Shown here: positions 1,845-35,568 of the stretch, piece after piece
Position numbering within the stretch: position 1 is the stretch's first letter
Layout of the letters: the number at the start of each line of letters is the position of its first letter
NCBI RefSeq assembly: GCF_000003605.2
Contig: NW_003146773.1
Location: forward strand, 168,000 to 211,066
Direction: 5' to 3'
DNA: 43,067 nt
From: Saccoglossus kowalevskii
Taxonomy: Eukaryota > Hemichordata > Enteropneusta > Harrimaniidae
Made by a program: the position numbers and the translations under genes
The notes under the pieces: model-generated
Database searches by the model: none
Told to the model about the DNA's origin: nothing
The model's input: only the letters and a program-made list of their open reading frames with translations

Positions 1845-4800
1845 AGTGAACTAATCACCAGTAAAGAATATCCATGTGAAGACCACTACGTCACAACGTT
1901 TGATGGATATATTTTGTCACTACAAAGAATACCTTTTGGAAATGTGCAAAATAAAACTACAGGTAACCAGTCCTTTTCTGGAGGTCACACTGAGGGGCTT
2001 CTGTAAAATAAATGGGTGACACTAATGCCATGTACGTCTTGAAATTGTTTTGATCTGTAGTTGTGTGTTAATAAAATAATGTTCTGTTCTCCCCAGTGTT
2101 TTGTTCTTTCATGTGTTCTGTTTGCCTGTGTACTGTTCTTCCAGTGTTCTGTTCTTTCATGTGTTCTGTTTGCCTGTGTTCTGTTCTCCCAGTGTTTTGT
2201 TCTCCCAGTGTTCTGTTCTAATTAGTGTACTGTTCTCCCAGTGTTCTGTTCTCCCCAGTGTTCTGTTCTTTCCTAAGTCTTGTTTACCTCAGTGTTCTGC
2301 TCTCCCATGTTCTCTTCTTTCATGTGTTCTGTTCTCCCATGTTCTCTTCTTTCATGTGTTCCGTTTGCCTGTGTTCTGTTCTCCCAGTGTTTTGTTCTCC
2401 CAGTGTTCTGTTCTAATTAGTGTACTCTTCTCCCAGTGTTCTGTTCTTCCAGTGTTCTGTTCTTCTCAGTGTTCTGTTCTCCCAGTGTTCTGTTCTCCCC
2501 AGTGTTCTGTTCTTTCCTAAGTCTTGTTTACCTCAGTGTTCTGCTCTCCCATGTTCTCTTCTTTCATGTGTTCTGTTCTCCCATGTTCTCTTCTTTCATG
2601 TGTTCCGTTTGCCTGTGTTCTGTTCTCCCAGTGTTTTGTTCTCCCAGTGTTCTGTTCTAATTAGTGTACTCTTCTCCCAGTGTTCTGTTCTTCCAGTGTT
2701 CTGTTCTTCTCAGTGTTCTGTTCTCCCCAGTATTTTGTTCTCCCAGTGTTCTGTTCTCCCCAGTGTTCTGTTCTCCCCAGTGTATTGTTCTCCCGGTGTT
2801 CTGTTCTTCGAGTGTTCTGTTCTTTCCTAAGTCTTGTTTACCTCAGTGTTCTGCTCTCCCATGTTTTCTTCTTTCATGTGTTCTGTTTGCCTGTGTTCTG
2901 TTCTCCCAGTGTTTTGTTCTCCAAGTGTTTTGTTCTAATTAGTGTACTGTTCTCCCCAGTGTTCTGTTCTCCCCAGTGTACTGTTCTCCTCAGTGTACTG
3001 TTCTCCCAGTGTTCTGTTGTATTCAGTGTTCTGTTCTCCCAGTGTTCTGTTCTTCCAGTGTTCTGTTGTATTCAGTGTTCTGTTCTTCCAGTGTTCTGTT
3101 GTATTCAGTGTTCTATTCTCCCAGTGTTCTGTTGTATTCAGTGTTTTGTTCTCCCAGTGTTCTGTTGTATTCAGTGTTCTGTTCTCCCAGTGTTCTGTTC
3201 TATTCAGTGTTCTGTTCTTCCAGTGTTCTGTTGTATTCAGTGTTCTGTTCTCCCAGTGTTCCGTTGTATTCAGTGTTCTGTTCTCCCAGTGTTCTGTTCT
3301 CCCAGTGTTCTGTTGTATTCAGTGTTCTGTTCTTCCAGTGTTCTGTTGTATTCAGTGTTCTGTTCTCCCAGTGTTCTGTTGTATTCAGTGTTTTGTTCTT
3401 CCAGTGTTCTGTTGTATTCAGTGTACTGTTCTCCCAGTGTTCTGTTGTATTCAGTGTTCTGTTCTCCCAGTGTTCTGTTGTATTCAGTGTTCTGCTCTTC
3501 CCAGTGTTCTGTTCTCCTCAGTGTTCTGTTCTCCCAGTGTTCTGTTGTATTCAGTGTTCTGTTCTCCCCAGTGTTCTGTTCTCAGTGTTTTAGCTGTTCT
3601 CCCCAGTGTTCTGTTCTTCCAGTGTTCTTTTGTATTCAGTGTTCTGTTCTTCCAGTGCTCTGTTCTCCCCAGTGTTCTGTTCTCCTCAGTGTTCTAGCTG
3701 TTCTCCCCAGTGTTCTGTTCTCCTCAGTGTTCTAGCTGTTCTCCTCAGTGTTCTGTTCTCCCAGTGTTCTGTTCTTTTCAGTGCTCTGTTCTTTTCAGTG
3801 TTATGTTCACCCAATTGTTTTATTTGTTCTCTCCAATGTTCTACTCTCCCCAATGTTTTATTCTATACCTAAAACAATATTAGGATTTGTGTCAATAATA
3901 TTACATATATATGACTTTTTCATTGCATATCACCATACAAAAATGTTGATAAATGAAGGAATTATCTCACTATAGAAACCAGTGTAAAAATGTTAATTTT
4001 GACATTTTACACTCTTGTTTCTTGAATAATAGTCTGTTTACTATATTATTTTCAGTATTCTAATACATAGACAAATAAAATTGAAAGTACATGAACATGA
4101 AATATTATCTTCAATTTGGTGTCCTTAACGATGGTTGATTATCAGTGGTCATTTATGCAAATATGACAGGACTCCAGAATACCTTGTTTTGAATACATTC
4201 TCATACATTACAATTTCAGTGTTAGTTTTTAGTGTTTGAATTTGCAAAACTATTCTATATATCAATGATAGAACGTCTAATGAGTGACCCTACAATTTAA
4301 TAATCTTATGTAGTTTGTGATCTCATTTGATAAATTAATTTTATAAATCTGCTATAGTAGGGTTACTCATGAAATATCCTCCATATACCGGTAAATGAAA
4401 ACCAGCATCCATCATATTGGTGGTGTACTTCAAATAGAGGAAATATGGTACATCGTCTATAATTGTAATCCTTGTTTCTGACTTTTAAAGGTGGGAGACC
4501 TGTGGTGTTTCTACAACATGGTCTGCTTGGTGACGGCACCAACTGGGTTACTAATTTAGTAAATCAGAGCTTTGCGTTTATCCTGGCGGATGCTGGATAT
4601 GATGTATGGATTGGAAATCTCAGAGGGACTACTTACAGTAAAAAACATGTGAATTTGTCACCAAAGCGGAGACAATTTTGGAAATGGAGGTAAATTATTT
4701 TTATTGTTTGTATTCTGGATAGTAAGTACAGGTGGGTTTCATAGACACTGACAAATTTGTCAATGAGTGCGAGTCTGTTATTGCGGACAAGAAATAGTCC

Positions 4801-15240: not shown

Positions 15241-16455
15241 AGAATTAATTAAAACAACAACATCAATGGCCACAGCTGGGAGGTATGTCATTCACAGAAG
15301 TGTGAGTAGTACAAATTTACACCTGTCAGGACATTCTCACTTAAAAAAATTGTGTTAAGTTAAAATGATAGAAAGGACCATTTTGAACTCCCGTAACTCG
15401 TTTTTTCTCCACATTTTCCCTCAGGACGCTAAAACCATCACTGAACCCCGAGTCTTCCCCGGCCGCGGAGCCTTCCTTGGCTCGGTCGTTTGAATAACCA
15501 GGGAATCCCGAGATTTCCCAGAGTCGCATCAATTATTACTGATGTTTAGTAGCGAACCAAAAATAGTAGTTTAAAGTTACGTGACTTCATTATCCCCTCA
15601 TTTTTACTATTGCATTTGTTTACAGTACAGATATGTAAGGTATCCCGGACCGTCTTTTAGCTCAGACACGGTTAATACTAGCAACCGTGGCTCAGACTCG
15701 GACAAGCAAAATATCTGAACAAATCTGAGCTAGTAAACTTCTATTAGTAATGGAGCATGTGGAAGCTACACGAACAATGGTTTTAAGACTTTCAAGAACA
15801 CATTGTCGAAGTTGACACATATCAACACTACTAATAATGGAAAGTGACGAAGTAGTATTTTTTAAATGGTATATTAACAATAAAATGTCTGAAATATTGT
15901 TGACAATGTTCAGTTGACAATATCATAATATGTATAATTGTTTATTTAAATTTAAATCGTTATCATAATTCCCAAAACTGCACTAGTTTTTATTTGATTT
16001 AGCTACGGTGTTCCCCATTTCAAAACTGGGTAGTGGGCTGAAGGGTGAAGATAAATTGATTCAGTTGTCTTCTTGATGGCTGTGCATGTAAGAAAAGGAT
16101 AAACCCCCAAAATAAAAAAAATTATTGATCGCCAAGTAAATGTGAATAAAATATATATTTGCAACAACAAAAAATTCCTCTACCTCCAGATTTCAAATAG
16201 GAAGCTCCAAAAAGCAGTTTTTTGTTGAACCATCCACACCTTAAAATTTGCATAAATACAGGGTAGTTAAATTCAGCTAGATAAAATTGGAGCTGAAAAC
16301 GAGGAGAGATTTAGAAGGGGTGGCATATAATTCAGTGCAATCATGATGTTTTTCAGTAATTTAACCAGAAAACGTGTTTCATCTTATCATGTAAAATGAA
16401 GAAACCGTGTATCCTGGCTCCAAATAAACAGTTTGATGACTTTGGTTCTGTTGAC
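15241..16455. other. Intergenic region upstream of H2A.Z
   Basis: A GC-rich patch at about 15420-15500 (CCCCGGCCGCGGAG) and a small inverted repeat CACGGTT/AACCGTG at 15667-15689 stand out. No exon could be supported. Confidence 0.4.
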
Positions 16456-25871: not shown

Positions 25872-25917
25872 ATCTAAACATGGAAGGTACTAACATTAGT
25901 ACCTTCCATGATCTAAA
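25872..25917. mobile_element. 32-bp palindromic micro-element with 7-bp direct repeats, copy 1
   Basis: The core at 25879-25910 has two perfect 14-bp arms, CATGGAAGGTACTA and TAGTACCTTCCATG, around an ACAT loop. It is flanked on both sides by ATCTAAA. A second copy with a different 7-bp flank is at 35523. Confidence 0.65.
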
Positions 25918-25967: not shown

Positions 25968-26180
25968 ATCATTTTATCAAAAATGATAAAAATGTTTACT
26001 AAAATTAGCAAATTAAGCTTGTGGTTACAAAATATCAGAGGTCAACCCAAGATACATATATAATAAGTATCAAAGCAAGCAGATTTTCAAGAAGAATTTG
26101 AAAATGTAAAGTTAACAACAACAGACAAACAGAAATATGCTCTACTCTGGCGATTAAGTCAACAGCAGAGCTAAAAAAAT
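25968..26180. repeat. Dispersed repeat J, copy 3 (old)
   Basis: Shares TACTAAAATTAGCAAATTAA, AAGTATCAAAGCAAGCAG and TTTTCAAGAAGAATTTGAAA with the pair at 29678-30062, at clearly lower identity. Confidence 0.6.
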
Positions 26181-27395: not shown

Positions 27396-30300
27396 CTATT
27401 TAATTGTCAAGACTGGAGATCGATATAGTTTGTTCTTGATCAGTCTAAATCCCGGGCTTACTGTTATTGAGTTTCTATGCGCAAATTTTAGACAAGTTGG
27501 AAATGTCAAACTGAAGAAAGTTTTGTCAATTCGCTGAAGGGTCAGATGAATTTCAAACGTTGCCACAGTGTCAGGATCCACAGCAATTTTACCGAGCTTT
27601 CGAATATGTCTCCCGTCCTCCATCGTAATGAATGTTGTACAGCCTCTAATACCACACGGTTCACATTCTGACATTCGCATAATGTCTTGCGCAATCCTTA
27701 AAGTTAGATTGCATGGTATGTACATTTCGCAGTCTAGTTTAACTTCTTTCGCAGTCCTAAGAGTTTCAAATATACGCTTTGATAGACTTTCACACGTTTC
27801 CTTTTCATCTGGGTCTTCGAATGTACCGTAACTATTCTCGTTTACAGACACTGTAAATAAACAGAAAGAATGATCAGGTATATATTCTGGAATTCAGCAT
27901 GGCAAGTAAAGTCCAAGCTTCACAGACACACAGATATTTCTTGACAGAACTAATATGGTAATTCTCTAGCACATGAACAGAAAATCAAACATTGAATGAA
28001 ATCCCATTATAGTTACAGAATTCGGAAAAATTTAATTTATGTTTCATGAAAATAAGAGTAACAACAAAGAAAATCAGAGGGCACAACATTTTACTTTGCA
28101 ACTTCAGAAGTTACTAATAGCAACAAACAATGTATCCTTGACGACTTCTCTTCCCAGAATTACCAACTTGATTTGGGGTTGATTTTAATTTGACTTAGAG
28201 TTCCTACAAAATCAGTTCTGTTACGAGGCACAGTGTTAACAATGTAACACTAACAAAACCAGTGTGTGCTGACTGCAATACATATTCCTCACTATTCCTC
28301 AATGGTTTTACCCACAATACTCAGTCTTAAAAAAACACTGCCAAGCCACCTTATTAATTGCACCACAAGCAAATTATTGTTTTTGGAGGTGGTTGAATTA
28401 AAGCAGAATTGAGTGGTTTATTTATTTATTGAGTGGGCGTTCGCCAGTACATGCTAACTTGATTTCAGGACTGAAACATGTCAATGGAAATAAGTCTCAG
28501 AAGTGTAACTATTTTTATATTTCTAGTCAATAAAGTGAAATTAGAAAATGCATTCAAATCCCAGTAAAAATCTGTACTTTTGAAATGTTACCCCCCCCTC
28601 CAAGTAATATTTTGCCCCTAAATATATTCCTCATCTCTGCACATTGAACTACCACCCACATGGTAGACTTTGCAATTTCCTGGTTAGTCATGGTGGATGT
28701 GTTTGACATAAAACTGATTGTTACGATATCCTCTATTCTCCAAAAAGCATCCTGTGTAATATCAAAGACTACCGTTCTGTTCAATTAAAAAAATTCAAAA
28801 GACATTGCCATAATAGACTAAGAAAAAACAATTATTTTTGTTCGGCACTTCCAGAATCATACAAAAATATAATTATTTTAACTCTCTCTCAGGCAAATTT
28901 GTTTTCTTAGCAGCAAAGATTTCAGTGTTCTGTTCCACAGGCATTGCTGTAACTCTAACTTTCACATGCAATAATTGTTGACACACAAAAAAAAAAATTG
29001 TCACATTTGTGTAATTGATAATTTTGAACCAATTTTTGAAAAAAACGGGAAAAAATTATGGATGTTTATTTTGCCACAGTCTCCATGGACTGTGATTTCA
29101 TGAAAGGAGACAAATGGTGAGTGACTCAGTCACAATTTACAAGCAAACCACTAGATAATCAAGTTTTTGACACTTGATTTTATTTTCAAATAAAGTATTC
29201 TGCAGTGGTAGTATTCTTAGATACGCTCTTGTACAACAACAATTTTTTTTTATAAATTCAATATTTTATTAAATGTTTTTGGTTAGACCACAACTATACA
29301 GGACATGGAGTGTGATCAAGGTTTGTAGTCGCTCATCCCCACAAAAAGCTGGGACCTTGCAGGCAAGTTTCCCCAGTCATTAATTGGTTATATTTGTTCA
29401 TTGGTGGTGCATGTCCACTTCCTGTTTGTCTATTTGATTTTTTGTGAGCAAAATCTCCATAAATATACAATATATAATTCTAATTGTGGCATACAAGCCT
29501 GCAGTTATAATCCTAGTCATGTTGATCCAATATGTAGCAACAACCAAGATTAGGGCTCATTAAACTCTACAGGGGTTTTTAATTAAATAAACAGCTGATT
29601 AAATTTGCCTGGTGTGATGTAATCATTTTTATTTTCCCCTCCTGAGATTGAAATTTAAAAATCTGACCTTTATAAAGATCACTTTTTACCAAAAATGACA
29701 AAAATATTCACCAAAATTAGAGAATTAAAGATAACATTACAAAATGAATAAATCTGAGAGAGGTCCACATGTAGTACCTATATATGTAATATCAAAGCAA
29801 TTGGACTTGCGGTTTTTAACAAGAAGTCGAAAATATCACTTTTTACCAAAAATGACAAAAATATTCACCAAAATTAGAGAATTAAAGATATGATCACGAA
29901 ATGAACAAATCTGAGAGAGGTCTACCCAAGGTACATATACACCAAGTATCAAAGCATTCAGGCTTGTAGTTTTCAAGAAGAAGTCGAAAAAGTAAAACAT
30001 TGACACGGACGACAACAGACGACGGCGGACAATCACTCATATGATAAGCTCCGCTGTCGACTTTGACTAATTAAAAAATTGTGAATAAATAAGCTTATTT
30101 GCCGTGATTTAATTGCCCTGTTTTTATCTACATGTAAAAAATAGCCCCAGGGGTGAGGAAGTGTTGAACTTGGTAGTGAATTGAGAAACACGTGATAGAG
30201 CCACTGCAATGAAACTGGTCTGCGTCAATAACATGCTCGCGAATCCGCGAAAGCGACGACCTTCCATTGTATGTAAATTAGGTCAGAGTTCACGGCTATT

Positions 30301-32664: not shown

Positions 32665-34334
32665 AAGTTAGCGGGGAAGGGTATTGGTGACATAAGGGTA
32701 CTGGCGCGGTTATCCCAAGCTGTCTCGGACAAGTATTTATTATATCGTACTTATTAAATATGAATAATCAGTTACTCTGGGTGAAACAAAGCCATTCCTT
32801 TCATTTGTATAGATATTTATAAATTCCACAATTCAAACTGAAACGAAAGGTTTCTCTTGACCGATTAAATAACATTGGAACATTTTCGAATGGCGTCGCT
32901 GTGCATTGTGCTCGTTCATTGACTGGTTTTATTCAACTGCCATTGAAATGTATATATTTATAACGATGAAGGAAATACATTTGTTGCGCTGATAGTAGCA
33001 AAGCAACAGTTACAGATAACCCCTTTATATTAAAATAAACATTTTAATCATGGTGAAAACAATTACAAAATGGAATACAGTTTTTGCATGTTTCGCACAA
33101 CCCAGGAAAGTATTTAGCATAACCTTTATTAATAAACTTTATTATATTAACAATGCAAATTTAACCAAAGACAATAGAAAAGATGTCTTCTAATGTCTTT
33201 GATTTAACTACCTTGGTTTCAAATTAGGCACTGTTATTTTAAGAAGATAAGGTCACAAAGCATTGTTCTCCCTGGAAAAAAATCTGGTCACCATTTATTT
33301 TTGATAAACCATTCCCTGTTCATAATAGTGATGTCTAGGAGTGTAATATAAAATCAAGTACTGAGAATGTGCACTAATATCTACTCCTGTCGGTTTCAAA
33401 AACACATCCCAATTAACAGCGAGCTGGGTAGGTATCCGATTTCAGCCCAAAACAACTAATAAATTTCGTACTAGTAGCAGCGAAACACGCAATTAAATGG
33501 ACCTTCAATAGAGCAGCGATTCGACCGTAACGTTTTGCAATTATTAGTCACAAACAGCACTTAAGCAAATACAGTAATTGCTGCTGAAATAGGATTTACT
33601 AGTATGTGAAAGATCAAAAGATAGATAAACAAATACCGGGCACATGAAATCAACAATGACAATACCATTTATCAGAATGCCTAAGCAAAGAACAAATACT
33701 AGTAATTATTTGTAAAAAAATAAACACAGAAATTTATATAATGAAAAATATCTAATTGTTTGATTGCTCTTCGTGAATCTCTAACCAGATTCCGATTACG
33801 TAACCTCTCACTGAAAATAGAATGTGATCATTATCATGTACCTGTCAATGACATAATTTCTAAAACGTTGTGATGGCAATGGAATTGAAGATAAACAACA
33901 TTTTGTACACAATATTGAACGCAAAGAAAAAGTGTTTTAACATGCTGAACAAATCTAAGAAACATTTATTTCAATTCATTCAGATTGAAAATATGTTTGA
34001 ATATTTTTGGGGGAATAACCTGTCAATACCTCTCGCGCAGTTGTTATCAATAATTACGCAACACAGACAGCAACGCATGCTTTAGTTTGTTTAGTCTTAT
34101 TCAGTGTTATTTTTCTCTGTTTTTTTTCTTCTTACCCTTTTTACACCTTTCAAGGAATGTTATGTGTCAATAAAATCATTGTTATTATTATGACTAACCG
34201 TTTGCGTAAAGGATGAAATGAAAACAATGTAGACTACGTACAGTGGGGGCAATTGTTTACTGTCTCCTCATTGCACTGTTTTCCCGGACTGTCTTTAGTT
34301 ATCAGTGTGAGAACTAAACAGAGGGCACTCTTGG

Positions 34335-35522: not shown

Positions 35523-35568
35523 GTCATACCATGGAAGGAACTATCATTAGTACCGTCCATGGTCATAC
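35523..35568. mobile_element. 32-bp palindromic micro-element with 7-bp direct repeats, copy 2
   Basis: The core at 35530-35561 begins CATGGAAGGAACTA and ends TAGTACCGTCCATG, with a TCAT loop; it differs from copy 1 at three or four positions. The flanking direct repeat is GTCATAC on both sides. Confidence 0.65.

What the first reader, a model, noticed from the sequence alone, without database searches (positions are those of the whole stretch)
25872..25917. A 32-bp palindromic micro-element flanked by a 7-bp target-site-like duplication
The core 25879-25910 is two perfect 14-bp arms (CATGGAAGGTACTA / TAGTACCTTCCATG) with a 4-base loop. ATCTAAA stands immediately on both sides. The same 32-bp core recurs 9.6 kb away with a different 7-bp duplication. 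A shared core with unrelated, equal-length flanking repeats is the signature of insertion, yet 32 bp is far smaller than known MITEs. It may be a minimal hairpin mobilised in trans, or a product of hairpin-primed repair.
Basis: partly seen in the sequence, partly recalled or inferred. Interest (0 to 1): 0.75.

Follow-up and report, generated by a model that had tools for sequence, protein, structure and literature searches.

The report
Palindromic scars of departed jumping genes
The tiny 32-base palindrome looks like a repair scar left where a larger cut-and-paste jumping gene, resembling the fruit-fly P element, was cut out of an animal's DNA, rather than a tiny jumping gene of its own.

Summary
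The core 25879-25910 has 7-bp direct repeats on both sides; a second copy (29 of 32 bases alike) at 35530-35561 has a different 7-bp repeat. The window's own 572-Mb genome holds 84 such places (control 0). Of 38 copies read, 28 have an exact 7-bp duplication, with a shared palindromic target motif. Two copies sit in host repeats whose other copies show empty sites.

The minimal mobile hairpin is probably the wrong reading. Longer elements (one read: 927 bp, 33-bp inverted ends, 7-bp duplication) begin with the same sequence. The palindromes look like excision footprints: tails of about 17-19 nt from both ends, joined at short self-complementary words. Such words predict scars of 32, 26 and 20 bp. 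All three exist; the 20-bp class was predicted before it was searched (13 places). A blunt 34-bp class, predicted in the same note, was not found. Most other junction forms are one-offs, some with inserts resembling the tail. Published Drosophila P-element excisions show the same architecture.

Against: the 31-bp class needs 18-19 nt on one arm, one of eight other junctions checked lacks the duplication, and no transposase-bearing parent or filled allele was seen.

The parts
25872..25878 (.). left 7-bp target-site duplication ATCTAAA
25879..25910 (.). 32-bp palindromic footprint (family with ends CATGGAAGG); the consensus is a perfect palindrome, this copy has one base changed in the central CG
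25911..25917 (.). right 7-bp target-site duplication ATCTAAA
35523..35529 (.). left 7-bp duplication GTCATAC of the second copy
35530..35561 (.). second footprint of the same family, 4 mismatches to the consensus
35562..35568 (.). right 7-bp duplication GTCATAC of the second copy
15667..15689 (.). 23-bp imperfect palindrome of another family (CACGGTTA...), flanked by GCTCAGA; footprint by analogy only
33166..33201 (.). 36-bp imperfect palindrome of another family (CAAAGACA...), flanked by ATTTAAC; footprint by analogy only

Best explanation
It is an excision footprint. A cut-and-paste DNA transposon with 33-bp inverted ends beginning CATGGAAGGTACTAACGG inserted and duplicated 7 bp of target (two long copies read: duplication exact in one, 6 of 7 in the other). 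It later left. The transposase cut one strand at the element's end and the other about 17-19 nt inside, so both donor ends kept 3' single-stranded tails of the element's end (inferred; described for the Drosophila P element in papers). The two identical tails annealed at a short self-complementary word: CG at positions 16-17 gives 32 bp, TA at 13-14 gives 26 bp, GTAC at 9-12 gives 20 bp. They were filled in and ligated, leaving both 7-bp duplications (inferred). In other cases end joining added bases, some resembling the tail. The enzyme is most likely of the P superfamily (inferred).
For: (1) Parents: 131 ends matching the first 28 bases of the 33-bp end with up to 3 mismatches, control 0 (100 of 131 rows listed); 28 facing pairs 215 to 3973 bp apart, most near 0.8-1.0 kb, among the listed rows (coordinates only); L058 is 927 bp with a perfect 33-bp TIR and CCTACAC on both sides. 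(2) Junction classes: 26 bp in 5 places and 20 bp in 13 places; the 20-bp class was written as a prediction, when the 26-bp one had been seen. Self-complementary words of 2, 4 or 6 bases in the tail predict only 32, 26, 20 and 4 bp. (3) One-off junctions: 18 places of 33-59 bp, all different; inserts of 4 nt or more in 15 classes match the 19-nt tail better than shuffles, 0 of 5000 reaching the sum, also without the 59-bp and C1597 cases; singly, 6 of 15 are at or below 0.05. (5) Insertion: L002 has exactly 39 extra columns against four paralogous repeats; for L053, 39 places match across the junction (ranges only). (6) In P{wa} excision junctions of spn-A flies, 5 of 68 are a 32-bp palindrome joined at TA between target duplications (PMC2895639, Table 1 and passages). 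(7) P-type transposase domains occur in this genome: PF21787 13 matches, PF21788 2, PF21789 5, all three in order at C1630.
Against: The 31-bp class (7 places) and several inserted junctions keep 18-19 nt on one arm, so a strict 17-nt tail does not explain them; why the 31-bp junction recurs is unexplained. The blunt 34-bp class predicted in the same note did not appear among the 18 places. Of 8 non-32-bp footprints whose flanks were read, 4 have 7/7, 3 have 6/7 and 1 (L066) has 4/7; about 23 others and all 13 of the 20-bp class were not read. 10 of 38 copies lack an exact duplication. Nine of 15 inserts do not resemble the tail more than shuffles do, singly. No site was seen both filled and as footprint. 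The only link of these ends to a transposase is one TIR end 3.9 kb from a decayed PF21787 match at C2502, which the other two domains did not confirm.
Confidence: 0.85

Rival explanations
1. The 32-bp palindrome is itself mobile: a minimal MITE moved in trans by the transposase that recognises its ends.
For: 84 places, many identical, exact 7-bp duplications in 28 of 38 copies; the 31-bp class recurs 7 times; some asymmetric base changes are shared by three copies in the listing (by eye).
Against: Copies come in lengths predicted by self-complementary words of the parent's end, and 18 further places have junctions that all differ, which copying of one micro-element would not give. If the enzyme cuts 17 nt inside each end, a 32-bp unit would leave no double-stranded element (inference).
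Confidence: 0.1
2. Internal deletion derivatives: incomplete gap repair after excision shortened the element almost to its two ends, in place.
For: Facing pairs of ends lie 215 bp to 3973 bp apart (coordinates), so internal length varies; synthesis followed by end joining is described for P{wa} in PMC2895639.
Against: Such products should often keep more than 19 nt of the 33-nt ends; none of 22 junction classes does.
Confidence: 0.04
3. Footprints of a transposon that is not of the P superfamily but also makes a long stagger (a variant of the best explanation; the odds overlap with it).
For: No transposase copy with this family's two ends was seen; the duplication is 7 bp, while P and zebrafish Pdre2 make 8.
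Against: Galileo of the P superfamily makes 7-bp duplications with a palindromic consensus; the long stagger is described as atypical and as a feature of P.
Confidence: 0.2

Closest known systems
Drosophila melanogaster P-element excision footprints (P{wa} assay, PMC2895639; passages with Table 1 seen)
   Same: Target duplications kept; inverted terminal tails joined at 2-base self-complementary words (32 bp at TA, 5 of 68; a shorter class at AT, 14 of 68); inserts with templates nearby.
   Different: 8-bp duplication, different end sequence, made in an experiment with spn-A mutants, with long-microhomology joins that erase most of the tail; here natural, many sites, arms up to 18-19 nt.
Galileo (P superfamily, Drosophila; PMC4168063 and PMC2775673, passages seen)
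   Same: 7-bp duplication with palindromic target preference (GTANTAC).
   Different: Long inverted repeats; the motif here is TnnRTYNRAYnnA; no palindromic footprints in the passages seen.
Pdre2 / THAP9 of zebrafish (PMC10983969, passages seen)
   Same: Ends begin CAT and end ATG; P-type transposase.
   Different: 8-bp duplication, 13-bp TIR.

Membership tests
P-superfamily transposon (parent) | P-type transposase encoded between this family's ends | tested here: inconclusive
   P-type domains are in the genome; one TIR end 3.9 kb from a decayed PF21787 match at C2502, chance about 0.025 by a rough sum made after seeing it; 100 of 131 ends were listed; no copy with both ends and a transposase.
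P-superfamily transposon (parent) | 7- or 8-bp target duplication | tested here: met
   28 of 38 footprints exact 7; long copies L058 exact, L059 6 of 7 (by eye)
P-superfamily transposon (parent) | Inverted repeats with CA...TG ends | tested here: met
   33-bp TIR, 100% in L058 and 91% in L059
P-superfamily transposon (parent) | Cleavage 17 nt inside the end | tested here: inconclusive
   Arms of 22 junction classes stop at 19 nt or less; the main class fits 17, others need 18-19. The cut itself is not testable here.
Excision footprint | Both target duplications kept with remnants of both ends between them | tested here: met
   28 of 38; of 8 other junctions 4 exact, 3 with 6/7, 1 with 4/7
Excision footprint | Varied junctions with microhomology or templated inserts | tested here: met
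   a predicted blunt 34-bp class was not found
Excision footprint | Same site seen filled in another allele or individual | tested here: inconclusive
   One search scored 40 of 822 candidates, 39 of the 41 matches spanning the L053 junction; no filled site seen
MITE | The short unit itself moves | not testable with these tools
   Needs assays or related individuals; the junction evidence speaks against it

The most novel reading that the evidence does not exclude
The genome holds a large natural archive of P-type excision scars from several transposon families, perhaps tens of thousands, from which cleavage stagger and germline end-joining habits can be read without an experiment. Basis: 6 palindromes with CA...TG ends and 7-bp flanks in 107 kb of unmasked sequence of L018-L037 (five, one of them with 6/7; L027 only), about one per 18 kb. 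These stretches came from contigs that carry the first family, so the rate is rough, and that the other families are footprints is by analogy.
Probability: 0.5. Interest if true: 0.7.

Novelty: new member of a known kind. Interest (0 to 1): 0.5.

Why it matters
Scars like these could be annotated as tiny mobile elements or missed. Read as repair products they record how a transposase cut and how the germline rejoined the break over evolutionary time, in an animal without genetics. They also warn that a shared core between equal-length duplications does not prove that the core moved.

Tried and rejected
Rfam: no match at the gathering threshold in the window. Viral contigs: no copy of the core (that collection may leave out this genome's own records). 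Blind scan for long elements with 7-bp duplications in the loci in hand: none with CA ends; the parents came. KolobokP was considered after a listing and set aside: its duplications are 3-5 bp (passages). hAT was considered from memory (8-bp duplication) and not tested further. A strict 17-nt tail was considered and not held, because of the 18-19-nt arms. From the list of junctions used I left out one place, C2077:8327-8368, which overlaps a place.

Own errors corrected: after I wrote that all eight other junctions have 6-7 of 7; L066 has 4 of 7. That L055 and L056 have shifted duplications is my reading by eye and is not counted.

Literature: searches; passages were seen in PMC4168063, PMC2775673, PMC10983969, PMC2895639, PMC7776569 and PMC9587614, only listings of the rest. 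I make no claim that natural footprints of this kind are absent from print.

Full report
At 25879-25910 stands CATGGAAGGTACTAACATTAGTACCTTCCATG with ATCTAAA on both sides, and at 35530-35561 a relative with GTCATAC on both sides. The window lies in a 572,110,611-base genome of 4830 contigs; an open frame of the RTP801/DDIT4 type at 27396-27848 fits an animal. The 26-bp core with up to 3 mismatches has 84 places there, reversed control 0. The consensus is a perfect 32-bp palindrome with CG at its centre.

The flanks are insertion marks. Of 38 copies, 28 have an exact 7-bp repeat; the ten others have 6, 6, 6, 5, 5, 5, 4, 3, 1 and 0 of 7. The 28 duplications share a palindromic preference, T at -3, RTY...RAY within, A at +3; the information in the 7 bp, both strands pooled, is 2.94 bits against a mean of 0.27 and a maximum of 0.84 in 500 random draws. 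L002 carries exactly 39 extra columns (32 + 7) against four paralogous repeats, though its own duplication has decayed to 4 of 7. For L053, whose duplication is exact, 39 of the 41 matches run across the joined flanks without 39 extra bases (ranges only; no alignment was seen).

A search for one arm with a different continuation found longer elements with the same ends in inverted pairs. L058 is 927 bp with a perfect 33-bp inverted repeat and CCTACAC on both sides; L059 is 1730 bp, 91% in the repeat, flanks 6 of 7 by eye, with no frame of more than 81 residues. 131 ends match the first 28 bases with up to 3 mismatches, control 0. Among the 100 listed rows 28 facing pairs lie 215 to 3973 bp apart, 21 of them between 707 and 1031 bp. 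Only L058 and L059 were read.

This suggested that the palindrome is what stays behind when the long element leaves. The Drosophila P transposase cuts one strand at the end and the other 17 nt inside, leaving tails on the donor. Two tails ending ...TAACG can pair at CG and be filled in: 17 + 17 - 2 = 32. The same logic gives 26 bp at TA and 20 bp at GTAC. Later the 26-bp form was found in 5 places and the exact 20-bp form in 13, which are 13 of the 18 places that fit the looser pattern. The blunt 34-bp form was not among the places. In Drosophila spn-A mutants 5 of 68 junctions after P{wa} excision are a 32-bp palindrome joined at TA between target duplications, 14 are the class joined at AT, and inserts mostly have templates nearby (PMC2895639, passages and Table 1).

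Other junctions look like break repair too. Eighteen places of 33-59 bp all differ. In 15 junction classes with inserts of 4 nt or more the summed longest match to the 19-nt tail is 83 against a shuffle mean of 51.4, 0 of 5000 shuffles reaching it; without the 59-bp and C1597 cases 61 against 43.1, again 0 of 5000. Singly, 6 of the 15 are at or below 0.05; others are runs of A and T. In 22 classes no arm exceeds 19 nt of the 33-nt end.

Results against this reading. The 31-bp class, 7 places, and several inserted junctions keep 18-19 nt on one arm, so the tail may be longer than 17 nt or another step is involved. No filled allele was seen. The transposase is not tied to this family: PF21787 has 13 matches, PF21788 two and PF21789 five, all three in order at C1630, but the only nearness to these ends among listed rows is at C2502, 3.9 kb, unconfirmed by the other two domains.

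Other small palindromes with CA...TG ends and 7-bp flanks occur in the window and nearby stretches. In 197 kb of unmasked sequence CA-ended palindromes number 25 at a 7-bp repeat (15 of the first family, mostly the seeds of the search, and 10 others) and 1, 0, 1 and 0 at 5, 6, 8 and 9 bp; up to one mismatch was allowed from 7 bp on and none below. At 7 bp 20 hits have other ends, 11 of them GA; I think these GA hits are a tandem array in L015, but did not check each. The ten others may be footprints of further families; that is analogy.

Verdict: an excision footprint, 0.85; of a P-superfamily element, likely but not shown. The kind is known from Drosophila experiments; a natural set of this size in another animal is the point of interest.

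Noticed in passing
window 27396-27848 (-): Open frame matching Pfam RTP801_C (DDIT4/REDD1-like), E 6.9e-33.
   Followed up: no
L017:1455-1529: Two palindromes of different families abut and share one 7-bp repeat, ATATAAC, suggesting a second insertion into the first one's duplication.
   Followed up: partly
L005:1498-1529: A 32-bp copy sits inside another palindrome, CACAGTCCCTC....
   Followed up: partly
window 2080-3813: Long tandem array of a 16-17-bp unit, about 105 copies.
   Followed up: no
L019:8425-8555: 131-bp element with inverted ends CACAGTCACTTGG and an 8-bp repeat, perhaps another non-autonomous transposon.
   Followed up: no
L059:656-1296: Repeats of about 160 bp inside the 1730-bp parent copy; part resembles the window's right flank at 25972-26016.
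   Followed up: no
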